From positions 1,339,978-1,403,977 of the forward strand of contig NZ_CH672413.1 in the NCBI RefSeq assembly GCF_000152705.1: a stretch of DNA of 64,000 nt, in the 5' to 3' direction. The position numbers and the translations under genes are program-made. Under the pieces are notes generated by a model that had not been told where the DNA came from, did not search any database, and worked only from the letters and a program-made list of their open reading frames with translations. Position 1 is the stretch's first letter. Each line of letters opens with the position of its first letter. The DNA comes from Janibacter sp. HTCC2649. Lineage in GTDB: Bacteria > Actinomycetota > Actinomycetes > Actinomycetales > Dermatophilaceae. This document shows positions 51,364-64,000 of this stretch, one piece after another.

Positions 51364-51735
51364 ATGGGCAAGTTCGTGTCACGGCCGTTGGTGCTGCTGC
51401 CCCTCGGCGTCGCACTGCTGCTCGCCGGGCTGCTCACGGGCCTCAACAGCGTCGGCGCGTGGCGATGGGGCAGCGTGCTCGACGACCAACGCTTCTGCGG
51501 CGCCGACCATCAGGGCATGTGCCTCGTCCGTGAGGACGTCACGATCGACGGACCGCGCAACACGTGGCGCAGCGCCGGAGACGACTGGGACCTGCGACCG
51601 ACCTCGGGTCGCGCCCACGAGGTCTCCCTCCCCGACGGCGACTCCGACGCGCTCGACGACGCCCAGGTGCACGACGGCGCGATGCTCTCGCAGCCCGACG
51701 GTGACGTCGTGGGCGTCGAGGTGGACGGCGCATGA
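51364..51735 (+). CDS. Small membrane-anchored protein, unknown
   Basis: 123 residues. One N-terminal transmembrane helix (LVLLPLGVALLLAGLLTGLN), then an acidic exported part with two cysteines (DDQRFCGADHQGMC). No known family. It diverges from the kinase across 134 bases and overlaps the next gene by four bases (ATGA). TTGACG at about 51304 may be a -35. Its position suggests a link with the kinase or the secretion locus; no function is assigned. Confidence 0.7.
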   Translation: MGKFVSRPLVLLPLGVALLLAGLLTGLNSVGAWRWGSVLDDQRFCGADHQGMCLVREDVTIDGPRNTWRSAGDDWDLRPTSGRAHEVSLPDGDSDALDDAQVHDGAMLSQPDGDVVGVEVDGA

Positions 51736-51966: not shown

Positions 51967-54900
51967 TCATTTGCCGGCAGGGGTGGGTGTCGACGGCATC
52001 CACTCGCTGACGCCGGGTTCGGTGCGTCCGTTGGGGCCCGAGATGACGTCGAAGCCCAGGGTGAACATCGAGCGCCACTGGTCGACCGTCAGCCGCTCGG
52101 CGTTGACACCGGACTGTGGCTCGGTGAGCAGCACGCTGCCGTCCGGGCTGTGGATGTCGAGGTAGAACGTCGGCGCACCCGACTCCTGCTTGACGAGCAG
52201 GACGTAGATGTAGCCCTTGGACTCGGTCGCGACGTCGAGGTAGGTCACGCCAGTGCTCGCCGCCTCCCGCAGTGGCAGGTAGGAGACCACCTGCTGCACG
52301 ACGAGATCTCCGTTGGGCGGCTTGGTGATGTGATGGCGGGTGAAGTTCGTCGTGTCCTCCACGAGCCACGAAGCACCCACGCTCTCGAGTGTCACGATGA
52401 GCGTCGGCGCGATGTAGGCGTCGAGGTAGGGAACGCCGTACTCGTCGCTCTCCAGACGGAGATCGAGGACCAGGCCCGACGTCGTGTCGGTGAGCAACCA
52501 GAGGTGCCCGGCCGTCGTGGTGAGCACCGAGTACGCATCCGGTTGGTTTCCCGTCGACCCGAAACCGGCGCGGGTGAGCGCGTCGATGAGGGTGGCATCC
52601 ACCACGCCCGCATCGAGGTGGGCGACCACGGGGGCCGGGTCCTTGACCGCGAACTTGGGCGCGGAGGGTGCCTTGGCCCCGGCCTGGAAGGCCTGGACGA
52701 GAGCCGGCGGCGCCTCGTGAGCATCGAGGTCCTTGACGAACTGCGTCCCGATGAGGAAGTGCGGTTGACCCACGGAGAAGCAGGCGACGGGGTTGCCCAT
52801 GACGTCGAAGGCCTGGATGCGGCGGTTGCCCTCCTCGAGCACGAGGATGCGCCCGTCAGCCGTGATCGTCAGGGCCTGTGGGTTCTGCATGAGACCCTCC
52901 CGCACCCCCTCCCCGGCGAGCGGCATGGCGCAGGGCGCGTCGTCGCTCGGCAGGGCGGCCGCGGGGAGCTTGAGGCAGTAGAGCTTGTGGTTGACGTAGT
53001 CGACGCCAACGACGTAGCCCTGAGGGTGGACCGTGAGGCCCTGCAGGTTCCCGGCGTTCATGAACCGACCCCAGGCCGTGGTCCCTTCGTAGTCGAACGT
53101 GTGCGTGCCGAGGCCCTGGTCCAGGTCGACGCCGCGCAGGTAGAACACGGGGTTCGCCGCCGTGTGAGAGCGCGGGTCGAGATAGAAGTTGTCGAGGCCG
53201 GGCACGGGGTAGGCGTAGACGGCGATGTGGCTCGTCGTGGCGGTGGTCTTCGGGTCCTTCGCCGCCGCAACCGGGTCGGTGACGGTGACCAGGTCGAGCT
53301 CGTAGAGCGGGCTCTGACCGGCCACGCCGATGGTCCAGGCCGACCCCGCGGTGACGACTGCCACCTGGCTGCTGCTCGGCAGGGTGCGACCGAAGCCGGC
53401 GAACTCATGGGCGACGTCGGGCGGGACGGGGCCGGCGACCAGTTCGCCGGCCATCGCGGAAGGCAGGGGAAAGAGCTCGGTGAGTCCGAACTGGTCGTAG
53501 GCGATGAGGGTCGGAAGGCTGAAGCCACGGGTCGGCTCGAAGATGAGGTCCTCGGGTCGGGCGAGGGTCGAGATGCTCTGCATCGCATACATGGGGACGT
53601 CCTGCGGCTGGTCGCCGTGATCGAGCGGCAGGTTCTGCCCGCTGGCCATCCAGGCGTAGCCCAGCTGGTAGGCCGTGTTGTTGTGGACGATGTTCTGCAG
53701 GAAACCGAGGTGGTGACCGGTGGGCCCCTTGGGCAGCGGATAGGTGGCTGGCAGTGGGGGCACCTCGTGCTGGGTGTCGACCACCTTGAGCTCCGAGTCG
53801 GTGCTGTCCGGGATCGGGGCGAGCGCCACCGAGAAGGCCGCGCCGGTCGTGGTGTCGCTGATGGTCCACGAGGAGTGTGGCGTCACCACGGTGATCTTCG
53901 CTGTCGCGGCGAGCGGGTTCCCCTCTGCGGCAAAGGCGGCGACGAGGTCTGCCGAGGGGCTCCCGCCGGCGTCGAGCCCGGACGCGAGCGCCGCCTTCAG
54001 GCTGAACCGCGTGACCCTCCAGACGTGGGTTCCGCCGGCATACGTGAGCGCCTGCTTCTGGCTGTAGGTCGTCGTCGGGGTGAGCGGCACGAGCACCTCG
54101 GTGATGGCGCCCTCGACCGAGATGGAGTCGCCGCTCGTCGGGACGGCGCTGACCCACCCACTGGACCACTGACCGCACAGCCAGTTGGTGTCGGAGTAGA
54201 GGCCCGCGGTGACCTCGACCTTGCCCCCGGCGGGGATGTGCGTGAAGGTCACGACGATCGGCTCGTCGTGGACAGCGGGCATCGGCCCGGCGAGCGTGTA
54301 GGTCGTGCCGCCGCCCTGACCGGGGGCCGCGGGATAGGTGACGCGCACGACGTAGTGGTCGCTCACCAACGGCCACACCGGCTTCTGGTTCTTGGTGCCG
54401 TGCTTGGGATCGGGGCTGACCGTGACCTGCAGGTCCATGGTGCGCAGGACATCGAGCTGGTAGGTCGCCGGAGACAGCACGCACTCGACCGTCGTCGCCG
54501 TGAGCGAGGCCAGGGAGGCAGCGATGCTCACCACCTTGAGGGCCCAGCCCGCCACGGGGACCTGCTCCAGCGCCTCCTCGGCGGTCATCTCGGCGACGAA
54601 CTCGGCCGTGGCCTCTGTCAGCCCCTTGATGGCGGCCTTGGCGCCCATGACGATGAGGCGCTCCATGATCTTGCCGAACACGACGCCGGTGGCGATCCCC
54701 GCGAGCTTGGACAGCACCATCTTGCCGAAGCTCGAGTCGAACGTGCCCGCACCGGTGACGATGCCCGCCGCCCCCAGACAGCCGGCCACGGCGAAGAACC
54801 CCACGCCCCACTCCTCCTGGAGCCACTTGATGAAGGGGTTGATGATGTAGACCTGCGCCAGCATCGCGATCGCACCGATGCCGTAGCAGACGATGCCCGT

Positions 54901-56496
54901 CGCCAGGACGCCAACGATGTCGACGTCGCTGTCCCAGTCCGTGAACCCCGACGCGCAGCCGAGGCCACCGAGCAGGATGGCGGCATGTGTGGCGTCGTCG
55001 GGCCACAAAAAGGACAGTTCGGTGCGCTGGGTGAGGAAGGGTGTCGGCGCTCCGAACAGGGCCGAGCCCGCCGACGAGAAGCCGAGGTAGTTCTTGGTGT
55101 CACTGGGCTCGACGAAGCCGCGCACCATCTCGAGCGGCAGCCGGTCCTCCCACGTGAAGGGCTTGCTCGGGTCCTTGGGGTTGGTCGCCGTGATCTTTGC
55201 CCTGCTGATGGCGGTGCCGTCGGACCGCAGGAAGGAGACGTAGAGCCCGAGGTAGCGCGACGGCCAGTTCTTCACCGGGATCGTCAGCATCTTCTTGTCG
55301 TCGTCCCAGGTCAGCTCCGTGTCGTACAACCACAGGCCGTAGGTCGACGTGACGTTCTTGACGCCGAACGCGCTGGCCGATGACGAGAGCGCACCCGCAC
55401 TCGTGGCGGCGGCGACGGCCGGGGCGACGGCGGCCAGCGGTCCCGGGCGTCCACCTCGCAGGTCGGGGCGCAGCTGCGGCGCGGGCGTGGGAGCGGGGGT
55501 CGCCACGGGCATCGGCGCGGGCATCGGCGCAGGCGTCGCAGGGGCAGTGGCAGTGCGCTCGGTGGTGCCGGTCGGCTGGGTCCACATCAGTCCGCGCAGG
55601 GCCGAGTCGTCCTTCGTGGCCCGCAACACGTCGGAGACGACCGCCGTCGCCGCTCCGATGACTCCGAGGTCCGATGAGTTGCCGGCGGGCGGGTCGTACT
55701 CGTCGGTGAGGTCGTAGGTGGCCAGGCCCGGAGCGTTCGAGCCCGGAGGTGTGTGCCACGTGGTGATCTTCTCGCCGTTCTTGTAGACCAGCTCCGTGTT
55801 GGCCTCCGCAGGCACGAGCGGCCCTGTGCCGTCAGGGTTCTGCGACCACGAGACCCACGACTTGTTGTACCAGCAGCTTTCGCTGTTCGGGCCGTTCTCC
55901 TGGAGGTAGGTCACGAGGTCCTGGAAGGAGATCCCCTCACTGACGTAGGTGTCGAGGACGTACTGCGCCACCATCCCGTTGACGGTGCCGATCTCGGGGT
56001 GCTGCATGACGATCGACTGCGCCGTGACGTGCGGCGGCTTCACCGCGGTCGCCGCGAGGTGGACCCCGTGGTAGTTGTCGAACGTCGCCTCGCGCTCGAC
56101 CCCGTAGCTCGCGAGCGCAAGGTGATGCCGGCCGCGGTCGCGATAGCCCGGCATACGGTGCAGTGCGTCCTCGACGTCCTGGCGGCCCACGTGCATGAAG
56201 GCCATCGCGATCTCCGGGAGCGGGTGCTCATCGAGGGACGGGAAGACGACTCGATGCATCGCCACCCCCCGCACCAGCAGGGGCGCCTCCTCGACGAAGT
56301 GGGTCATCTGGGTGAGCTGGTCCTCCTGCACCAGGGCCAGCGCCGCATTGGTGGACCGGTGCTCGTCGAGCTTGGACGGCTCGTCCGCATAGCGCCGCAG
56401 CGGCACACCACCGGGCACGCCGCACAGGAGGCGGTACTCGAGCTCGGACGAGTGGGCGGAGAGGTCGAAGTGCAGGGTGCTCGGCTGGACGGTCAT
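51967..56496 (-). CDS. Giant multidomain protein with hydrophobic core and NHL-like repeats
   Basis: 1509 residues; no signal peptide. Residues 1-300 are a globular region with several His (GVAMHRVVFPSLDEHPLPEI). A Pro/Ala/Thr linker lies at about 310-345. Residues about 505-670 are hydrophobic helices with Gly/Ala motifs (VGVLATGIVCYGIGAIAMLA), reminiscent of pore-forming or membrane-inserting proteins. Residues 680-1000 are beta-rich. About 1110-1250 are NHL/propeller-like (GLMQNPQALTITADGRILVL, EEGNRRIQAFDVMGNPVACF). A module repeats around 836-906, 1011-1073 and 1296-1364 and also occurs in the next gene's product. Family not recognised. It is the last gene of the six-gene operon. Confidence 0.82.
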   Translation of the reverse strand: MTVQPSTLHFDLSAHSSELEYRLLCGVPGGVPLRRYADEPSKLDEHRSTNAALALVQEDQLTQMTHFVEEAPLLVRGVAMHRVVFPSLDEHPLPEIAMAFMHVGRQDVEDALHRMPGYRDRGRHHLALASYGVEREATFDNYHGVHLAATAVKPPHVTAQSIVMQHPEIGTVNGMVAQYVLDTYVSEGISFQDLVTYLQENGPNSESCWYNKSWVSWSQNPDGTGPLVPAEANTELVYKNGEKITTWHTPPGSNAPGLATYDLTDEYDPPAGNSSDLGVIGAATAVVSDVLRATKDDSALRGLMWTQPTGTTERTATAPATPAPMPAPMPVATPAPTPAPQLRPDLRGGRPGPLAAVAPAVAAATSAGALSSSASAFGVKNVTSTYGLWLYDTELTWDDDKKMLTIPVKNWPSRYLGLYVSFLRSDGTAISRAKITATNPKDPSKPFTWEDRLPLEMVRGFVEPSDTKNYLGFSSAGSALFGAPTPFLTQRTELSFLWPDDATHAAILLGGLGCASGFTDWDSDVDIVGVLATGIVCYGIGAIAMLAQVYIINPFIKWLQEEWGVGFFAVAGCLGAAGIVTGAGTFDSSFGKMVLSKLAGIATGVVFGKIMERLIVMGAKAAIKGLTEATAEFVAEMTAEEALEQVPVAGWALKVVSIAASLASLTATTVECVLSPATYQLDVLRTMDLQVTVSPDPKHGTKNQKPVWPLVSDHYVVRVTYPAAPGQGGGTTYTLAGPMPAVHDEPIVVTFTHIPAGGKVEVTAGLYSDTNWLCGQWSSGWVSAVPTSGDSISVEGAITEVLVPLTPTTTYSQKQALTYAGGTHVWRVTRFSLKAALASGLDAGGSPSADLVAAFAAEGNPLAATAKITVVTPHSSWTISDTTTGAAFSVALAPIPDSTDSELKVVDTQHEVPPLPATYPLPKGPTGHHLGFLQNIVHNNTAYQLGYAWMASGQNLPLDHGDQPQDVPMYAMQSISTLARPEDLIFEPTRGFSLPTLIAYDQFGLTELFPLPSAMAGELVAGPVPPDVAHEFAGFGRTLPSSSQVAVVTAGSAWTIGVAGQSPLYELDLVTVTDPVAAAKDPKTTATTSHIAVYAYPVPGLDNFYLDPRSHTAANPVFYLRGVDLDQGLGTHTFDYEGTTAWGRFMNAGNLQGLTVHPQGYVVGVDYVNHKLYCLKLPAAALPSDDAPCAMPLAGEGVREGLMQNPQALTITADGRILVLEEGNRRIQAFDVMGNPVACFSVGQPHFLIGTQFVKDLDAHEAPPALVQAFQAGAKAPSAPKFAVKDPAPVVAHLDAGVVDATLIDALTRAGFGSTGNQPDAYSVLTTTAGHLWLLTDTTSGLVLDLRLESDEYGVPYLDAYIAPTLIVTLESVGASWLVEDTTNFTRHHITKPPNGDLVVQQVVSYLPLREAASTGVTYLDVATESKGYIYVLLVKQESGAPTFYLDIHSPDGSVLLTEPQSGVNAERLTVDQWRSMFTLGFDVISGPNGRTEPGVSEWMPSTPTPAGK

Positions 56497-56538
56497 GATC
56501 TCTCCTGGGATGGGGTCCTGGTGCGGTCCGGGTGCGGT

Positions 56539-59421
56539 TCAGATCGGGCAGATGAAGTTGCCGTCGGGGTCGGGGACGCAGAATGGCGGTCGGGACAGGA
56601 AGCGGGCCCACATCCACTGGTCATAGGGCAGGCCGCTCGAGGTGTTGGCCGACACCGGGGCGCCATTGGGGCAGATCGTGCTGGTGCCCGGCGACAGCAC
56701 GCTCGAGGGCAGGATCGTGATCGCGCAGGGGACGTTGACGAACTCCTCCTGGCCCGGCCCCGACGACCGGACGATCCGGATCATGCGTCCGTAGACGTCG
56801 AGCCCGCCGTCGGCTGACGGGAGCGCGGTGAACTCGATGTAGCCGCGCGCGCTGCTGAACGGGTCCTCGGCGTCGTTCGAGATCCGCCAGCCCTTCGTGC
56901 GCAACGACGTCACGGTGGCAATCGCGCTGAGAGGAACCGACGAGCCGCCGAAGAGGGAGACGACCGTGGCGAGGGCCGAGCGCACGGTGATCGTCGTGTC
57001 GACACCGCGCACGGACGACGAGAACGACAGCCACAGCGTGTAGGTCGTCGCCCCGTCGATGACCTGCCAGGACTCGGGCGTCATGTCCGTCGTCATCGTC
57101 GCGGTCGCGGCGAGGGGGTGTCCCGCCTTCTCGAAGGCGCTCCGGATGCTCGCCGCGACTGCCCCGTTGCCGCAGGCGCTCATGAGGCTGAGCGGGAGGA
57201 AGAACGACGCAGAAACGGTGTATGCCGTTCCGCTCGCCACTCCGAGCGCCGGACTGTAGTCGTTGTCGACGGTGCGGAACACGACCCACGAGTTCGATCC
57301 GTCGGTCACCCGCCAGTAGACACCGATGGTGAGCACCGCCAGCAGTGCCGAGCCGGACAGGGTGATGCCGGCCTTCTTGAACGACGTCGCCACCCCGATC
57401 GGCACGGCGCCGGTCGCCTGCATCTGCGGCAGGACTGCGGTGGGCACGGTGAAACCCTTGGTGGCTGCCTGCAGCTCCGGGACGGCGATGACGGCCTGGT
57501 CCGGTGGGAGGCTGAACAGCCACACGCCGGCAGCTGCTTTGGCATCCGAGGGATCGGCCACCGCCACCGCGGCGTTGGACAGGATGACGTCACGCAGGGT
57601 GGCCCCGGTGAAGTCGGCCCCCTGGAGGTTGGCACCGTTGAACGACGGCTGGCCGCCCGTGGAGTCCACCGACACGGTCGCACCGATGAACTTGGCGCCC
57701 GTGAGGACGGCGTAGTCGAAGTTGACCCCCGTCAGGGACGCCTGGCTGAGGTCCACCAGACCGAGGTTGGCGTTGTTGGCCTGGAGCCCCTCGATGATGG
57801 CCTTGTTGAGGTTCACGGTGCGCCCCTGGGTGGCATAGAGCTGCGCACCCGACGCGCGCACGCCGAAGAGGTTTGCACTCTTGAGGTCGACGTCGACGAG
57901 GAAGGCGTTCGTCAGCACCGCCGGCAGGGTCGGTTGGTAGACGGTGAGGGACTTCGCCGCACTCCCGGGAGTCATCGACTCGAGGAACACCAAGTAGGTC
58001 TGCTCCACTCCGCCGCCCTGCACCGACCACGCACGGTCGGGCGCGAACGTCGACTGCCGCACGGCGAACGGTGCCGTGAGTGGGTGCTTTGCCGTGGCGA
58101 AGGTCTCGGTGACCACGGCCGCATCGGCGGAGTCGAGCGCCGCTCGGAAGGCGGCATACGTCGGCTGGTCCGACCCCACGCGGAAGACCTCACCGACGGC
58201 GCCGAGCTGCGCCCCGGTCAGGTCCGCCCGGCGCAGGCTGGCACTCGACAGGTTGGTCCCGTGCATGCCCACACCACCGGTGATGGTGGTGTGGTCGAGC
58301 ACCGCGAAGCCGAGGTTGGCGCCGTCGAGCTTGCTCTGGTCCAGCACACAGCCCGTGAGATCGGCGCCCGAGAAGTTGATCGTGCGCAGGTCGTAGCCAC
58401 TGAGATCGAGCCGTTGGATCCTGGCGCGGGGAAACTTCGTCTGCGCATTGATGACGAGGTTGCCCGGATAGATGTCCAGCCCGCCCCCATCGGGGTTGTT
58501 GAGGGTGGCACCGGTGAGGTCCGCGCCGGAGATGTCCATCTTCCCGGTCACGGAGGAGCCGGTGAAGTCGACCCGGGTGAGCGTGGCACCCACGAAGCTC
58601 GTCTGGTAGATGTTCGCTGCCCGGACCAGGATCGCATCGGTCATCACGGCGCCCGCGAACACCGCGTGGGCCAGGTTCGTCGAGTCGGTCAGGTCGGCGC
58701 GGGCGAAGGTGGCACCCGTGCAGTCGGCTCCGGAGAGGTCGACGCCCACGAGCTTGGCGTCGTCGAAATGCGCCTGCTTCAGTGTGGCTTCGCCGAGGAT
58801 GGCGTGCGGCATGGTGGCGTGTCGCAGGTCGAGGCCCGTCGCCCTGGCCTTCTGGAAGCCGGTGCCCGAGGAGAACGTCACCCCCGACAGGTCGGCTCCG
58901 GTGAGGTCGCTCTTGCTGAGGTCGATGAGCTGTTTGGCCGCGGCGAAGTCGGTGCCGTGCAGGTCTGCCCACGAGAGGTCCGGCTCGTTCGTGATCCCCT
59001 GGGCCAGGATCTGCGTGAGGCCGACCGTGACGACGCTCTGGTCGAACTGGGACGACGCGGTCGGCGCGGCTCCGTCGACCGGGACGACACCACCCGCGAC
59101 GACGCTCCACACCAGGTTCGTCGGGTGGTCGCGGTCCCGGCCGAGGTCGACGACGAGGACGGCCGCCCCCACCCCGGCGCTGCGGAGCGTGAACCAGTTG
59201 GCCGCGTCCGGGGTGCCCGCGGTCGCTGCGTAGGTCGTCCCGGTGCCCACGACCCAGCGACCGTCGAGTCCGCTCCGGAGCCGGAACGCCGGGTCCGTGC
59301 CATCGCCGTTGAAGCGGTCGCTGTGATCGCTCGGTGGGGCGCCGGCCCGCAACACGCCCGACACCGGGTCGACGAGGACGTGGGTCGACCCCTGACCGAG
59401 GACCCACTTCCCGAGGAACAC
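56539..59421 (-). CDS. Pentapeptide-repeat protein with N-terminal trefoil-like and C-terminal shared modules
   Basis: 960 residues from GTG, five bases after the previous stop. Residues 1-125 resemble a beta-trefoil or propeller fragment (MFLGKWVLGQGSTHVLVDPV, GRWVVGTGTTYAA). Residues about 150-420 and 490-610 are pentapeptide repeats of the A(D/N)LxG type (ADLHGTDFAAAK, SDLTGADLSGVTF, ANLQGADFTGATL), a right-handed quadrilateral beta-helix. Residues about 640-870 hold the module shared with the 1509-residue protein (AGHPLAATATMTTDMTPESW). Cys residues cluster at the C-terminus. No signal peptide is seen. Probably a structural surface or complex component. Confidence 0.83.
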   Translation of the reverse strand: MFLGKWVLGQGSTHVLVDPVSGVLRAGAPPSDHSDRFNGDGTDPAFRLRSGLDGRWVVGTGTTYAATAGTPDAANWFTLRSAGVGAAVLVVDLGRDRDHPTNLVWSVVAGGVVPVDGAAPTASSQFDQSVVTVGLTQILAQGITNEPDLSWADLHGTDFAAAKQLIDLSKSDLTGADLSGVTFSSGTGFQKARATGLDLRHATMPHAILGEATLKQAHFDDAKLVGVDLSGADCTGATFARADLTDSTNLAHAVFAGAVMTDAILVRAANIYQTSFVGATLTRVDFTGSSVTGKMDISGADLTGATLNNPDGGGLDIYPGNLVINAQTKFPRARIQRLDLSGYDLRTINFSGADLTGCVLDQSKLDGANLGFAVLDHTTITGGVGMHGTNLSSASLRRADLTGAQLGAVGEVFRVGSDQPTYAAFRAALDSADAAVVTETFATAKHPLTAPFAVRQSTFAPDRAWSVQGGGVEQTYLVFLESMTPGSAAKSLTVYQPTLPAVLTNAFLVDVDLKSANLFGVRASGAQLYATQGRTVNLNKAIIEGLQANNANLGLVDLSQASLTGVNFDYAVLTGAKFIGATVSVDSTGGQPSFNGANLQGADFTGATLRDVILSNAAVAVADPSDAKAAAGVWLFSLPPDQAVIAVPELQAATKGFTVPTAVLPQMQATGAVPIGVATSFKKAGITLSGSALLAVLTIGVYWRVTDGSNSWVVFRTVDNDYSPALGVASGTAYTVSASFFLPLSLMSACGNGAVAASIRSAFEKAGHPLAATATMTTDMTPESWQVIDGATTYTLWLSFSSSVRGVDTTITVRSALATVVSLFGGSSVPLSAIATVTSLRTKGWRISNDAEDPFSSARGYIEFTALPSADGGLDVYGRMIRIVRSSGPGQEEFVNVPCAITILPSSVLSPGTSTICPNGAPVSANTSSGLPYDQWMWARFLSRPPFCVPDPDGNFICPI

Positions 59422-59425
59422 GGCC

Positions 59426-60175
59426 TCAGCCGTGCTGCAGCGGCAGGATGGTGATGAGGATCGCCGTGGGACCCATGGAGGAGTCGCTCTTCAGGGACAT
59501 CGACCCCGACTGGCCAGCCTTGCCGGGAAGCCCGGCGTGGCCGGGTCCGAGCTGGCCGGCGGGAGGTGCCAGGGTCCCGTCACTCTTGTGACCGCTGGCT
59601 CCGGGAGTGCCGGCGCCGCCGGGTTGGCCCTCGTCACCAGCCCGGCCCGCCCTGCTGTCGACCGAGACCAGGCTGCTCGGCAGGCCCGAACCCAGAACCA
59701 CGGTGAGGTTGCCGCCTGAGCCGGCGTTGCCTCCGCTGCCCGCTCGGCCGCCCATCCCGCCGCGCCCGCCGGAACCTCCGGCGATGACGTCCCGACAGGC
59801 CTTGGGTTGCTTGCCCGCGTTCCCTCCGGGGCTGCCGTTGCCACCCGTCCCGGCGGTGGCGCCCTTGCCGCCGTTGCCGCCGTGGTTCCACACGTCCAGT
59901 GAGGCACCGACGAACTCGTCGCACGTGAACCTGCCACCGGGGGCGCTCTCGCCGTTGACGCCCGAGTTCGCCGGTGGCGCCGTGCCACCGTCGATCCCGG
60001 GGAGTCCGGGACCTGCCGGGTGCTCGCACTTGATGCCGAAGAGGTCGGCCTTGCCCGGCTCCCCGTTGCCTGCCGGGCCGAGGGGTGGCCCGTCCTTGCC
60101 GGTGGGGATGGGGTCGGGCTGGACCGCATCCGGGCCGTCGGCCCCGCAGAACATCAATGTCGCCGTCACGGTCAT
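59426..60175 (-). CDS. Collagen-like Gly-rich protein (first-type, 249 aa)
   Basis: 249 residues, over 30% Gly. Gly-X-Y stretches occur near residue 27-60 (GPPLGPAGNGEPGKA, GPGLPGIDGG), 100-160, and 175-225, where GDEGQPGGAGTPGASGHK and GHAGLPGKAGQSG are true Gly-X-Y runs with Pro in the Y position. Between them are beta-type insertions (NLTVVLGSGLPSSLVSV) and cysteines. It has no signal peptide; the start is MTVTATLMFCG. X-Pro-Gly is the classical substrate sequence of prolyl 4-hydroxylase, and such an enzyme is encoded first in this operon. Probably an oligomeric scaffold; inference. Confidence 0.78.
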   Translation of the reverse strand: MTVTATLMFCGADGPDAVQPDPIPTGKDGPPLGPAGNGEPGKADLFGIKCEHPAGPGLPGIDGGTAPPANSGVNGESAPGGRFTCDEFVGASLDVWNHGGNGGKGATAGTGGNGSPGGNAGKQPKACRDVIAGGSGGRGGMGGRAGSGGNAGSGGNLTVVLGSGLPSSLVSVDSRAGRAGDEGQPGGAGTPGASGHKSDGTLAPPAGQLGPGHAGLPGKAGQSGSMSLKSDSSMGPTAILITILPLQHG

Positions 60176-60190
60176 CGCCTCGTCCTCTCG

Positions 60191-60853
60191 TCAGCTCGGG
60201 TTCTGTTTTTTGCCGTTGAGGAAGAACTGGCCGCCCTTGCCCGCAACGCCCTTGTGGCCGTAGTCCCCGCCGCCGAGGGACCCGCCGCCGCCCGTGCCCG
60301 CACCTGGCGCACCGCCGGCGCCCGGGTTCCCGCTGGACCCTCCGGTGCCGGGTTGGATCGTGGCTGCGAAGGTGGGGCTGCCCTGGGCGAAGGTGATGTA
60401 GATGTCGCCGGCATCACCACCGTCCGGACCGTCTCCCCCGGTCCCGCCCTTCCCACCGGGCCCAGCAGGGCCGCTTGCGTTCGCCGAGCAGTCCGAGGGT
60501 TTGCTGCCCGGAGGACCACCGTCCTGGCCGGTCCCGCCCGTGCCACCCGGACCGCCGTTGCCCGCGTTGCCGCCCTTGACCGTGAGGACGTAGTGGCCCT
60601 CCATCACGGCAAGGTCGATCTTGATCTGGTTGCCATTGCCCGGAGTGCCTCCGTCCTGGCCCTTGATCCCGGTGTTCCCGTGGACTCCTGGGTTGCCCTG
60701 GCCGGGCTGCACCGAGCAGCTCTTCTTGCCCTCCACCCCGGGTGTCCCCTGCGCTGCCTGAACGGGGTCGATGCTCGCGGGCAGCGGAGGCGCCGGTGCC
60801 GCGGCATTGTCCTTGCCGTCCGGACCAGTGTTGCTGATCGTGTTGTCGGACAT
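60191..60853 (-). CDS. Collagen-like Gly-rich protein (second-type, 220 aa)
   Basis: 220 residues. Gly-X-Y-like runs include GNPGVHGNTGIKGQDGG, GGNAGNGGPGGTGGTG, GPAGPGGKGGTGGDG and GNPGAGGAPGAGTG. Short beta segments interrupt them (QIKIDLAVMEGHYVLTVKGG and DIYITFAQGSPTFAATIQ), the same plan as the neighbouring 249-residue protein. Cys residues (SCSV, SDCS) could crosslink chains. It lies 15 bases upstream of that gene in the same operon and is likely its partner in a heteromeric fibre. The triple helix is not proven because many runs are Gly-Gly-X rather than strict Gly-X-Y. Confidence 0.78.
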   Translation of the reverse strand: MSDNTISNTGPDGKDNAAAPAPPLPASIDPVQAAQGTPGVEGKKSCSVQPGQGNPGVHGNTGIKGQDGGTPGNGNQIKIDLAVMEGHYVLTVKGGNAGNGGPGGTGGTGQDGGPPGSKPSDCSANASGPAGPGGKGGTGGDGPDGGDAGDIYITFAQGSPTFAATIQPGTGGSSGNPGAGGAPGAGTGGGGSLGGGDYGHKGVAGKGGQFFLNGKKQNPS

Positions 60854-60858
60854 GGCGC

Positions 60859-61473
60859 TCAGCTCGCCCCGGGTCCGGGTGCGTCGGACTTGATCATCTT
60901 CTGGCAGTGGAAGTCGACGTTGCCCTCGAACTTGATCGATCCTCCGGCATAGATCGTCACCAGACCGTAGATGTGCCCGCTCTCGGCCGTGATGACGTAG
61001 GGGCTGTTCGCCGTGGTGATGACCAGCTCCTCGGCAGCGAAGACCGGAATCACCTTCGGGTAGTCCATCGCGTTGATCACGTCGCGGTAGCTCTCGACCC
61101 GACTCGAGTTGCCATAGAGCCAGACGAGGTGCGCGTGATGGATCTCGGCGAGTTCCTCGGCGCTCGCCTCCTTACGGGTCAGCTGGCTGCGCTCACCAGG
61201 CCATTCGTCGGGGATGCGGTGGTGCTCTTCCATGAGTCCGCTCGTGTAATGACTGTCCGGTATGCCGGCCAGTTCCTTGAGCGTGCCGACGTCCTTGACC
61301 GTCATGAGGTGAGGTCGAATCGTGGACACGTCCGGGTCGGGACTGGCCACCAGCTGGCCCGGATGCGTGTCGGGGCCCACCAGGGCCGCGACGTCGGCGG
61401 GCTCGATCCCCGCCTGCGCGAGTCGTGCTCGAAAGGCCGCCTGCTGTGAGTCGGTGAGGTCGCTGAGTGGCAT
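60859..61473 (-). CDS. Unknown 204-residue protein of the collagen-like operon
   Basis: 204 residues, GAGGAG six bases upstream of ATG. The N-terminal half is helical (TDSQQAAFRARLAQAGIEPA, EASAEELAEIHHAHLVWLYG). The C-terminal half is a beta domain with PKVIPVFAAEELVITTANSP, YVITAESGHIYGLVTIYAGG and SIKFEGNVDFHCQKM, which looks like a short beta-helix rung set (ITTA / ITAE / VTIY / IKFE). No known family. Its beta part has the alternating pattern of capping or polymerising domains. It is cotranscribed between the oxygenase and the collagen-like genes. Confidence 0.75.
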   Translation of the reverse strand: MPLSDLTDSQQAAFRARLAQAGIEPADVAALVGPDTHPGQLVASPDPDVSTIRPHLMTVKDVGTLKELAGIPDSHYTSGLMEEHHRIPDEWPGERSQLTRKEASAEELAEIHHAHLVWLYGNSSRVESYRDVINAMDYPKVIPVFAAEELVITTANSPYVITAESGHIYGLVTIYAGGSIKFEGNVDFHCQKMIKSDAPGPGAS

Positions 61474-61491: not shown

Positions 61492-63627
61492 TCAGGTGAT
61501 GGATGGTGTGGGTGAGAGAGCGGGAGCTGGCTGACGGGCGTCCTCGTAGAACGCGATGAGGGACCAGCGGTCACCGTGCGTGACGCGGCGGACTCCGTGG
61601 ATGAGGGCCCCGGGATGGCTGATGGCCCAGCCACGCCGCCGCTCGACCACGCGCAACCCGCCATCGAGCAACATGACCAACTCGCCCCCGGAGGTCTGGT
61701 CGGGGTCCTCGAGCGGCACGTTGACGGTCCAGTGACTGTCGTCGGGGTGGAACGGGATGAAGGGTCTCGTGCGCTCGGAGAAATGACGCACGAACACTCC
61801 CCGCGGCACGGCGTGATCGGGTGCGGCGCCCTGCAGGCGCCGGGTGACGCTCTCTCCCAGGACCGCCTCGAGCTCGTCGAGCCCGAAGTCGACCTGGTAC
61901 TCGGGTCGACCGTCCACCGAGTCGATCACGAGCCCGCTGAGCCGTTCACGGGCCCGGTGCACGAGGGTCTCGCACTCCCAGTCCTCCAGGACCGACGTCC
62001 GGGTCACGTCGTCGCTGCCCGTCGGCTCGACCCCGCGCGTCCCCACCGGTCCGATGGCTGCAGCGGTGGCGGCCGAGAGCGCGGTGAGCGCCTCGATCTC
62101 CTCGGCCCGCAGGGTCGCCAGCTCCTCCGAGCGGTCGAGCAGCCTGGCGGAGATCTCGCGAAGGACGCGTCCCTCGTCGGCCCTCCCGGCGGCACCGACG
62201 GAGCCAGCTGGGCCAGCTGCGTCGGAGGTGTCCGCGGTGTCGGCGGGTGTTTCCCCGTGTGCCCGGGCAGCAGCCCCGACCACGGAAGCGCTCGGACGTG
62301 GGGCGGACAGTGGCAGGGCGGTGGCCATGAAGAACGCCGCCACGTCCGACATCGATGCACCGCACGTCGAGGACGCCGCCCCGGTGCGTGCCAACGACGG
62401 CACGTCGATCCCGACCCGCATCACGGTCCCCCGCCCGACGAGGCGACTCGTGAGGTATCCCCCGCAGACCAGCACACAACGCGGGGCCAGTTCCCACTGC
62501 TCGGCGTCGTCGCCGTCACCGACTGCGAGGTGGCACTCCCCACCCTCGTCCAGTCGCACCCAGGCCACGAGGTCGGTCCCGGCACGGGCACCCTGCTTCT
62601 CCTCGTCCACCGTCACCACGGCTGGCGGCTCGACGAGGGCCCCCATCGTCGCGATCCCCCGTGTCGTCAGCACCTCGTCGACGACGTCGACGACGCACCG
62701 GAAGGCCTCGAGGAGGTTCGACGAGCCCGACTCCGCGTCGGTGGACGAGTCATCCGACAGCTCATCGACGGGCAGGGCGCTCACCGCGGCGAGCGCCGCA
62801 GAAGTCACCCGGCGGCTCAGCACCTCGTCCCGACGGGTCACCGACCAGAGCAGGTGGCCCCGGGGATCGACGAACGCGTGGCGTGCCCTGCGCGGACCCC
62901 GGCTCAGTGCGGCCAGCTCGACCCGGCCCCCGGCGACGGCCTGCTCCTCGACCGCCGGCCTGGGCAGCCGACGCCACCGGTCCGGCGGCGGCATGTCGAA
63001 CTCGTGGACTCCCCCGGGCAGGTCGGCCCTCGAGCTCACGACCAGGTCGTAGGAGACAGACACGCGTGCCTCCGCCCCGCCGTGGGGCAGCACCTCGTGA
63101 CGCTGCTTCGCAGGGAAGACGAGCAGCCGTCCCGCGACGGCTTGGTAGACCGCACTGCCATGGCTGAGTGGCCCCTGACCCGATGCCGCACCCGCCCCGG
63201 CGCCGGTCGCCAGCTCGTTGGGGTGACCGGTGTTGGCAAAGCTCAGCTCCCCGCCCGGTCCGGGCGCTCGCAGATGGACCACCGCGCTCACATGGGCCGT
63301 GGGGTGGACGTGCGGCGCCACCCGCGACCCCGGCGCCGCGACAACCGGCCACGCGCGCTGGACGAGGAGGTCGAGCTCGTGGGTGGGGTGGCCGAGCTCG
63401 GCAAGGTAGGCCCATACCCCGGCGGCCACGGCTGCCGTCAGCTCGTCGAAATCGGGATCGTGGTGCAGGGTGTCGACCCCGTCGATGTCACCCGTCCAGG
63501 CAGCGCCTTCGGCGGGTGTGCGGCCGGCGAGGGAGAGGGCAGCCAGGACGAGCCGCTCGAGGGTCTCCGGGGCGAGGTCGAGGTCCTCATGGTGCACAGC
63601 GAGCGGGAACCACGTGTCCAGAGCCAT
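61492..63627 (-). CDS. Protein with two 2-oxoglutarate/Fe(II) oxygenase domains (prolyl-hydroxylase-like)
   Basis: 711 residues from the ATG 63625-63627, with GAGGAG five bases upstream; an upstream in-frame extension has no such site. Residues about 95-200 form one double-stranded beta-helix with HVHP (106-109), distal His177 and Arg188 (GRLLVFPAKQRHEVLP), like the TIGR02466 group. Residues about 600-705 form a prolyl-4-hydroxylase-like domain with HPD (H627, D629), H677 and R687 (VTHGDRWSLIAF). A 400-residue middle region has Cys and acidic stretches. Both sites appear complete, so it probably hydroxylates operon-encoded proteins. First gene of the operon. Confidence 0.85.
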   Translation of the reverse strand: MALDTWFPLAVHHEDLDLAPETLERLVLAALSLAGRTPAEGAAWTGDIDGVDTLHHDPDFDELTAAVAAGVWAYLAELGHPTHELDLLVQRAWPVVAAPGSRVAPHVHPTAHVSAVVHLRAPGPGGELSFANTGHPNELATGAGAGAASGQGPLSHGSAVYQAVAGRLLVFPAKQRHEVLPHGGAEARVSVSYDLVVSSRADLPGGVHEFDMPPPDRWRRLPRPAVEEQAVAGGRVELAALSRGPRRARHAFVDPRGHLLWSVTRRDEVLSRRVTSAALAAVSALPVDELSDDSSTDAESGSSNLLEAFRCVVDVVDEVLTTRGIATMGALVEPPAVVTVDEEKQGARAGTDLVAWVRLDEGGECHLAVGDGDDAEQWELAPRCVLVCGGYLTSRLVGRGTVMRVGIDVPSLARTGAASSTCGASMSDVAAFFMATALPLSAPRPSASVVGAAARAHGETPADTADTSDAAGPAGSVGAAGRADEGRVLREISARLLDRSEELATLRAEEIEALTALSAATAAAIGPVGTRGVEPTGSDDVTRTSVLEDWECETLVHRARERLSGLVIDSVDGRPEYQVDFGLDELEAVLGESVTRRLQGAAPDHAVPRGVFVRHFSERTRPFIPFHPDDSHWTVNVPLEDPDQTSGGELVMLLDGGLRVVERRRGWAISHPGALIHGVRRVTHGDRWSLIAFYEDARQPAPALSPTPSIT

Positions 63628-64000
63628 GGAACTCCTCACACCTTGCACAGGGGCGAATTCCGGGCACAAAGAAATGGCAGAATTCACTGTGTGAATTGAC
63701 GCAAGCAAGGGCGGGCGCATGAATGCGTCGCGATTTCCGAAAACCCACAACGGAGCCCGGAAGGACGGGTGGAGATTGCTTTCCCGAAGCCGTTCAGGTG
63801 CCGGTCCCCGGACATTCCTGAACAATCAGTCAGACTATTGCTCCTGCTTCTTCCGCGCAAGTAAATCGTCGAAACCCACGGCCCTCGATGGGCCAGCCGT
63901 CGCCCGGCTGATCCGCCAAACCCCACTGCCACAACGTCATTGGCCCCCCACAGGCCGCAGCGCGCGCCCGACTCGGTCAGCTCACCCGGGACAAAAAATT
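63628..64000. promoter_or_regulatory. Upstream region of the oxygenase/collagen-like operon; palindrome at 63681-63697
   Basis: This 373-base region is noticeably richer in A and T than its surroundings and carries no gene I can support. It contains the perfect palindrome AATTCAC-TGT-GTGAATT (63681-63697), 54 bases upstream of the oxygenase ATG, and the smaller dyad CGCAT-GA-ATGCG near 63713. The first is a good operator candidate for the operon's promoter. Nothing else is recognised up to the window's end. Confidence 0.5.

What the first reader, a model, noticed from the sequence alone, without database searches (positions are those of the whole stretch)
51967..59421. Recurring module shared by the 1509- and 960-residue proteins
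Both proteins contain a ~60-residue unit: a helix ending in (A/E)G(N/H)PL-AATA, a strand, TPxSW-x-(I/V)-x-D, then an aromatic strand. The clearest pair is AEGNPLAATAKITVVTPHSS in one and KAGHPLAATATMTTDMTPES in the other. Weaker copies lie around residues 1011-1073 and 1296-1364 of the larger protein and in the C-terminal 250 residues of the smaller. I know no named domain with this pattern. It could be a binding or assembly unit joining the two.
Basis: seen in the sequence. Interest (0 to 1): 0.65.

Follow-up and report, generated by a model that had tools for sequence, protein, structure and literature searches.

The report
Shuffled 80-residue add-on protein module
Two large neighbouring bacterial proteins carry several copies of a small, so far unnamed folding unit that also appears, spliced into different places, in unrelated giant proteins of other bacteria, so it behaves like a reusable add-on part whose job is still to be tested.

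Summary
Confirmed and widened. A has three full copies and one without helices; B has four, two of them weakly supported. In strict leave-one-out tests 20 of 24 copies beat all 300 shuffles. I found no Pfam, NCBIfam or PHROG family over it and no PDB sequence match. The predicted fold is propeller-blade-like, without significance.

A and B belong to a gene set shared with Xenorhabdus, Photorhabdus and Pectobacterium. The modules are insertions: A's first two copies fall almost wholly in alignment gaps, and Dyella's A and pentapeptide frames have none. Copies also sit in two homologous RHS proteins, a giant multicopper oxidase and a 3971-residue frame.

So this is an unnamed mobile accessory domain. 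Binding is the likeliest role, only inferred. 'Joins A to B' is not shown: Dyella's pair lacks it, though presence is all-or-none across A and B in five lineages.

The parts
51967..56496 (-). Protein A, 1509 aa: conserved N-terminal region, hydrophobic segments near residues 525-584, beta region, NHL-propeller-like C-terminal part, carrying modules at three sites
   Evidence: ORF; 35% identity, E 3e-50, to Xenorhabdus A; NHL similarity of the A family to TRIM71/Thin, E 1.8e-18; hydropathy
56539..59421 (-). Protein B, 960 aa: two pentapeptide-repeat solenoids with module copy 1 between them and copies 2-4 at the C-terminus
   Evidence: Pentapeptide E 2e-45; 29% identity, E 5e-34, to Xenorhabdus pentapeptide protein
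53776..54021 (-). Module copy A-1, residues about 826-907, insertion relative to Xenorhabdus A
   Evidence: leave-one-out 30.9 bits, 39.6 with upstream segment; all but its last residues fall in a gap of Xenorhabdus A
53212..53490 (-). Module copy A-2, residues about 1003-1095, insertion relative to Xenorhabdus A
   Evidence: leave-one-out 12.3 bits, 19.1 extended; falls almost wholly in a gap of Xenorhabdus A
52411..52665 (-).
   Evidence: single sequence not significant, but homologue profile E 4.6e-9 and 5.4e-7; same predicted secondary structure
52285..52401 (-). Helix-less unit A-3b, residues about 1366-1404, four predicted strands
   Evidence: profile-profile E 1.9e-6; strands in model
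57934..58185 (-). Module copy B-1, residues about 413-496, between pentapeptide solenoids; weakest of the B copies
   Evidence: no leave-one-out match, 2.8 bits extended with 1 of 300 shuffles as good; same position as copies in Xenorhabdus, Pectobacterium and G702 pentapeptide proteins
57232..57468 (-). Module copy B-2, residues about 652-730
   Evidence: leave-one-out 24.6 bits, 29.5 extended
56977..57222 (-). Module copy B-3, residues about 734-815 (contains KAGHPLAATA)
   Evidence: leave-one-out 16.3 bits, 24.3 extended
56788..56970 (-). Module copy B-4, residues about 818-878, follows B-3 directly and lacks the upstream segment
   Evidence: leave-one-out 3.8 bits against a shuffle maximum of 3.1; extended 5.7 bits with 1 of 300 shuffles as good; position matches the Xenorhabdus pentapeptide C-terminal copy
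59426..60175 (-). Gene C, 249 aa glycine-rich, collagen-like composition
   Evidence: Collagen profile E 0.0049, below curated cut-off; counterpart gene by place and composition in the Xenorhabdus set
60191..60853 (-). Gene D, 220 aa glycine-rich
   Evidence: no Pfam match; a glycine-rich part is fused behind the E-like domain in Xenorhabdus, by sequence reading
60859..61473 (-). Gene E, 204 aa, related to the N-terminal half of Xenorhabdus xb_420
   Evidence: 31% identity, E 4e-25
61492..63825 (-). Gene F, 777 aa, 2OG-Fe(II) oxygenase, first gene of the island
   Evidence: PF13759 E 2.3e-16; TIGR02466 E 4e-21, above cut-off

Best explanation
The recurring unit is an undescribed mobile accessory domain of about 75-80 residues: an upstream helical segment, a helix and a four-stranded antiparallel meander. 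It has been inserted or appended several times in loops and at the ends of large multidomain proteins. Shown by computation: homology of most copies, insertion relative to relatives, host proteins of different families, and a predicted fold. Inferred: the conserved positions are mostly hydrophobic plus a Trp and an Asp, so they hold the fold, while the variable surface most likely binds a ligand (protein, glycan or lipid). On A and B the copies would be surface-exposed binding units decorating an NHL-propeller protein and a pentapeptide solenoid of one gene set, possibly exported. A rough split: about 0.85 that it is a real, mobile domain; about 0.5 that its main role is ligand binding.
For: Homology: strict leave-one-out, 20 of 24 copies above all 300 shuffles; the upstream extension raises the score of 22 of 24 copies, for example the G635 RHS copy 21.1 to 40.6 and the Pectobacterium B C-terminal copy 16.2 to 43.9 bits. 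Insertion: A-1 and A-2 lie almost wholly in gaps of Xenorhabdus A, which has its own C-terminal copy that A lacks; Dyella A closes up where site 3 stands, and its genome has no match; G773 A has none up to its contig end. Different hosts: homologous RHS proteins in Pectobacterium and G635 (30% identity over 2493 columns, copy at the same place), a multicopper oxidase in G577 whose 8 fetched plasmid relatives (of 28 matched) have no match, and a 3971-residue frame in G700. Fold: module model pLDDT 82.6, pTM 0.62; helix plus four strands again at all three A sites in a second, weaker model.
Against: No ligand, catalytic site or partner is shown. Four of 24 copies fail the strict test and five of 24 the extended one. 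Copies outside A and B first came from genome searches with E-values from 1.5e-5 to 9e-3, so the weakest, G700, could be chance there, although its leave-one-out score is 14.2 bits. The larger structure model is poor (mean pLDDT 58). Export of A is suggested only by one homologue's Tat-like, lipobox-like start (by eye); A itself shows no such start.
Confidence: 0.6

Rival explanations
1. Assembly unit: the copies in A and B bind each other, or a common scaffold such as the glycine-rich proteins, and so join A and B.
For: In five lineages with both proteins readable, copies are in both or in neither; A and B are neighbours in one gene set across phyla.
Against: Dyella keeps the A and pentapeptide frames side by side without any copy; the unit also sits in RHS and multicopper oxidase proteins. 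The alignments show no conserved polar patch of the kind a fixed interface would need.
Confidence: 0.2
2. Structural filler: blade-like meanders that extend or cap propellers and solenoids, with no binding role of their own.
For: The top structural neighbours are propeller blades: Hsv2 Z 6.2, rmsd 2.9 over 63 residues; a chain of the SSU processome, prob 0.98, TM 0.59 (that these chains are propellers is recalled). A site 3 sits between propeller-like repeats.
Against: All Foldseek E-values are 0.4 or higher, Z under 8 is common, and phosphotransferases and an NTF2-like protein are listed too; pentapeptide solenoids, RHS shells and multicopper oxidases have no blade to extend; copies come and go between homologues.
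Confidence: 0.18
3. Chance or compositional similarity of Ala/Thr/Val-rich stretches in a 69% G+C genome.
For: Single-pair BLAST is weak (E 7e-4 and 0.26); the A-only profile did not exceed shuffles on B.
Against: Leave-one-out and profile-profile results; copies in Xenorhabdus, Photorhabdus and Pectobacterium homologues; rarity: 2 of 296, 3 of 295 and 7 of 398 genomes matched.
Confidence: 0.02

Closest known systems
Single blades of beta-propellers (Hsv2, DDB1 and others; family names recalled)
   Same: four-stranded antiparallel meander of similar size; best structural neighbours
   Different: no significant score, no sequence match; here a helix-headed unit is used singly in non-propeller hosts too
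NHL-repeat propellers (TRIM71, Thin, Brat)
   Same: the A family contains NHL-like repeats, E 1.8e-18
   Different: that is the host protein, not the module; the windows A1090-1159 and A1160-1229 do not match the module profile (E 0.36 and 0.52)
Pentapeptide-repeat proteins
   Same: B's solenoids, E 2e-45
   Different: Qnr, MfpA and HetL models match only below their cut-offs; I saw none that describes the inserted modules
Gene set A - E/D - C - pentapeptide - polyketide synthase of Xenorhabdus and Photorhabdus
   Same: homologous A, B and E genes and counterpart glycine-rich genes
   Different: no polyketide synthase among the island genes here; a 2OG-Fe(II) oxygenase instead; different module number and places

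Membership tests
Any described domain family (Pfam-A, NCBIfam, PHROGs) | profile match over the module | tested here: not met
   16 module copies against Pfam: six families hit by one member each, best E 0.0097; whole A and B in Pfam, NCBIfam and PHROGs show nothing above cut-off over the modules. Module copies alone were not scanned in NCBIfam or PHROGs
Beta-propeller blade | four-stranded antiparallel meander | tested here: met
   predicted E23-28, E32-37, E42-50, E57-66, a model and not a structure
Beta-propeller blade | significant structural or sequence match to a propeller family | tested here: inconclusive
   Z at most 6.2, Foldseek E at least 0.41, no sequence match
Beta-propeller blade | several blades closing a ring | not testable with these tools
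   single units in RHS and multicopper oxidase hosts argue against it
NHL-repeat protein (protein A) | NHL repeats | tested here: met
   A family profile against TRIM71/Thin NHL, E 1.8e-18; the single sequence stays below Pfam's cut-off, E 0.12
Pentapeptide-repeat protein (protein B) | pentapeptide repeats | tested here: met
   PF00805 E 2e-45, above cut-off
Gyrase-protecting Qnr/MfpA pentapeptide proteins | score above the family cut-off | tested here: not met
   QnrA 47.7 of 450 bits, MfpA 39.7 of 360

The most novel reading that the evidence does not exclude
The module marks an undescribed multi-protein surface or secreted system: an NHL-propeller protein with a hydrophobic core, a pentapeptide solenoid and poly-glycine/collagen-like proteins, all carried as one horizontally moving gene set by insect-associated bacteria and this actinobacterium. 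The shuffled modules would be its exchangeable receptor- or ligand-binding parts, much as receptor-binding domains are swapped on tail fibres.
Probability: 0.2. Interest if true: 0.75.

Novelty: new member of a known kind. Interest (0 to 1): 0.45.

Why it matters
If right, one small profile would link several families of very large uncharacterised proteins (NHL/pentapeptide pairs in Photorhabdus and Xenorhabdus, RHS proteins, a giant multicopper oxidase) and give each a testable binding part. It also exposes a conserved gene set of unknown function shared by insect pathogens and an actinobacterium. As it stands, it is a well-supported new domain with an unknown ligand.

Tried and rejected
Led nowhere: tblastn of A in phages, no match; viral contigs, none; genome contigs with A alone, none, but 16 loci with the two-row alignment; B N-terminus and the RHS N-terminus in plasmids, none; profile search in 297 genomes around the Deltaproteobacteria MAG, 0 of 297 and without a positive control; PDB with module profiles, best E 0.29 and 0.59; viral fold library, best E 0.17. 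Five paper searches (listings with abstract starts only, no paper opened) showed nothing on the module or the gene set; the library lacks most subscription journals, so this is not proof of absence in print.

Considered and dropped: recent exchange of one copy between A and B. The tree of 24 copies is poorly resolved and the AATA pair is only 27.6% identical, so it gives no support. G085, a repeat-rich protein matched at E 4.5e-4, looks like chance by eye. G710 and G742 matches lie in short frames of 49 and 116 residues, each with a stop inside, and were set aside. The C-terminal row is circular, because it contains query copies, and is not used.

Against my reading: the A-only profile stayed below shuffles on B; A-3 and B-1 are not significant alone and B-4 only narrowly or not; the upstream 24 residues alone beat all shuffles in only 3 of 24 copies; the two RHS hosts are homologues and so count as one host family.

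Checked late: that the G635 frame is an RHS protein, and that the G702 and Dyella frames are pentapeptide proteins, was first read by eye and then confirmed by Pfam.

Full report
What was checked.

Is the module real? Profile tests are stronger. Trained on B's four copies, an HMM finds A852-892 at 14.3 bits, while 2,200 shuffled proteins reach at most 4.8; the reverse direction, trained on two A copies, stays below its shuffle maximum. With 24 copies from this and other genomes, and with all copies of the same protein and the same site left out, 20 of 24 beat all 300 shuffles. The four that do not are A-3, B-1, Xenorhabdus B copy 1 and G702 B copy 3. A-3 becomes significant when its homologues are used (E 4.6e-9; E 5.4e-7). 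B-1 is supported mainly by its place, between the two pentapeptide solenoids, where other lineages also have a copy.

Size and fold. Reading 42 residues upstream of each copy showed a further shared segment in most, roughly a hydrophobic-x-Leu start and a Leu-Asp/Asn-x-Gly-like stretch before the helix. Adding 24 residues raised the score of 22 of 24 copies; 19 of 24 beat all shuffles in that form, the misses being A-3, B-1, B-4, Pectobacterium B copy 1 and G702 A site 3. That segment alone beats all shuffles in 3 of 24. AlphaFold2 on 46 copies gives a helix and four strands, pLDDT 82.6 and pTM 0.62. A second model of A740-1509 has poor overall confidence (58) but repeats helix-helix-four strands at sites 1, 2 and 3, and four strands without helices at 1366-1404. 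The best Foldseek and VIA-align neighbours are mostly single propeller blades (propeller names recalled), with phosphotransferases and an NTF2-like protein lower down, and none is significant; the viral library gives nothing at E 0.001.

Where it occurs. Relatives of A were found in Xenorhabdus, Photorhabdus, Pectobacterium, a Lysobacteraceae MAG, Dyella and, as a fragment, a Deltaproteobacteria MAG: 16 loci. In 12 of 12 Xenorhabdus/Photorhabdus loci A is followed by an E/D-like gene, a C-like gene and a pentapeptide gene; Pectobacterium has three E/D-like genes and no C-like match before its pentapeptide gene; polyketide synthase coding lies downstream in all 13. In the same 12 loci A carries a C-terminal copy and the pentapeptide protein two; the profile for this held X. 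bovienii copies, so for these close relatives it is not independent. A whole-genome profile search of 13 genomes matched 11 at E 0.01; in this genome all six matches are in A and B. Draws of other genomes: 2 of 296 in the own phylum (own genome and one weak match) and 3 of 295 around Pectobacterium, both at E 0.001; 7 of 398 around Dyella at E 0.01, two of them already known and two set aside. These searches gave copies in new hosts: homologous RHS proteins of Pectobacterium (res 144-195) and G635, a Cu-oxidase_3 protein in G577, a 3971-residue frame in G700 without Pfam match, and a further A/pentapeptide pair in G702.

Insertion, not inheritance of a fixed part. In the A/Xenorhabdus A alignment, copies A-1 and A-2 fall almost wholly into gaps, and the Xenorhabdus C-terminal copy has no counterpart in A. 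Dyella A runs straight through where site 3 stands; neither it nor its two pentapeptide frames gives a module match. A search with a module-free part of A matched 5 of 398 genomes and added G773, whose A has no copy up to the end of its contig. The G577 oxidase copy lies in a stretch of 175 residues for which the nearest relative has 56, and none of the 8 plasmid relatives fetched (of 28 matched) has a match.

The island. Proteins F to A were not found within about 11 kb of glycogen phosphorylase on that side in 7 of 7 sister genomes fetched; A was absent from 8 of 8 other same-genus genomes and 18 of 18 relatives. In 1 of 7 the small gene that follows A here (o123) lies about 360 bases from the phosphorylase gene, an apparent empty site. 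G+C of the island (69.3%) hardly differs from the first 51 kb of the window (69.0%).

Function. The conserved columns are mostly hydrophobic positions, a Trp and an Asp. This fits a shared fold without a shared active site. With different hosts and shifting places, a surface binding or decorating part is the likeliest role; this is inference. But Dyella shows that the pair exists without them, and other hosts are not A or B. A has hydrophobic segments near 525-584, and its homologues have such segments too; the G773 homologue starts with what looks by eye like a Tat signal and lipobox, so export of the family is plausible.

Noticed in passing
window 59426-60853 and 61492-63825: A 2OG-Fe(II) oxygenase gene (F) stands near two glycine-rich, collagen-like genes (C, D); it might hydroxylate them, as animal prolyl hydroxylases do to collagen (recalled). 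Not tested.
   Followed up: no
L008, L010, L012 (Photorhabdus), upstream of A: Four to five further paralogues of the E/D glycine-rich gene lie upstream of A in these loci, beside the one downstream: a local gene family expansion.
   Followed up: no
L002:12737-17863 and matching loci: A type I polyketide synthase gene (ketosynthase, acyltransferase, dehydratase, ketoreductase and carrier domains by Pfam) directly follows the pentapeptide gene in X. bovienii; related synthase coding is downstream in the Photorhabdus, Xenorhabdus and Pectobacterium loci.
   Followed up: partly
L079:10526-12310 (-): In G702 a 594-residue protein with an LBP/BPI/CETP C-terminal domain match (E 1.5e-7) stands between A and the pentapeptide gene, in place of the glycine-rich genes.
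   Followed up: no
L081:5102-15494 (-): The module-bearing giant multicopper oxidase of G577 lies in a cluster with a LodA-type L-lysine epsilon oxidase.
   Followed up: no
L019:275-1513: In the Deltaproteobacteria MAG a fragment of A runs on from a transporter-like N-terminus (by eye); a fusion remnant or a mis-assembly.
   Followed up: no
window 51364-51735 and L095:2956-3288: The small gene following A lies about 360 bases from glycogen phosphorylase in one of seven sister genomes, an apparent empty site for the 12-kb island.
   Followed up: partly
window A residues 1230-1299: A borderline profile match (E 0.0015) just before copy A-3 may be a helix-only half copy.
   Followed up: no
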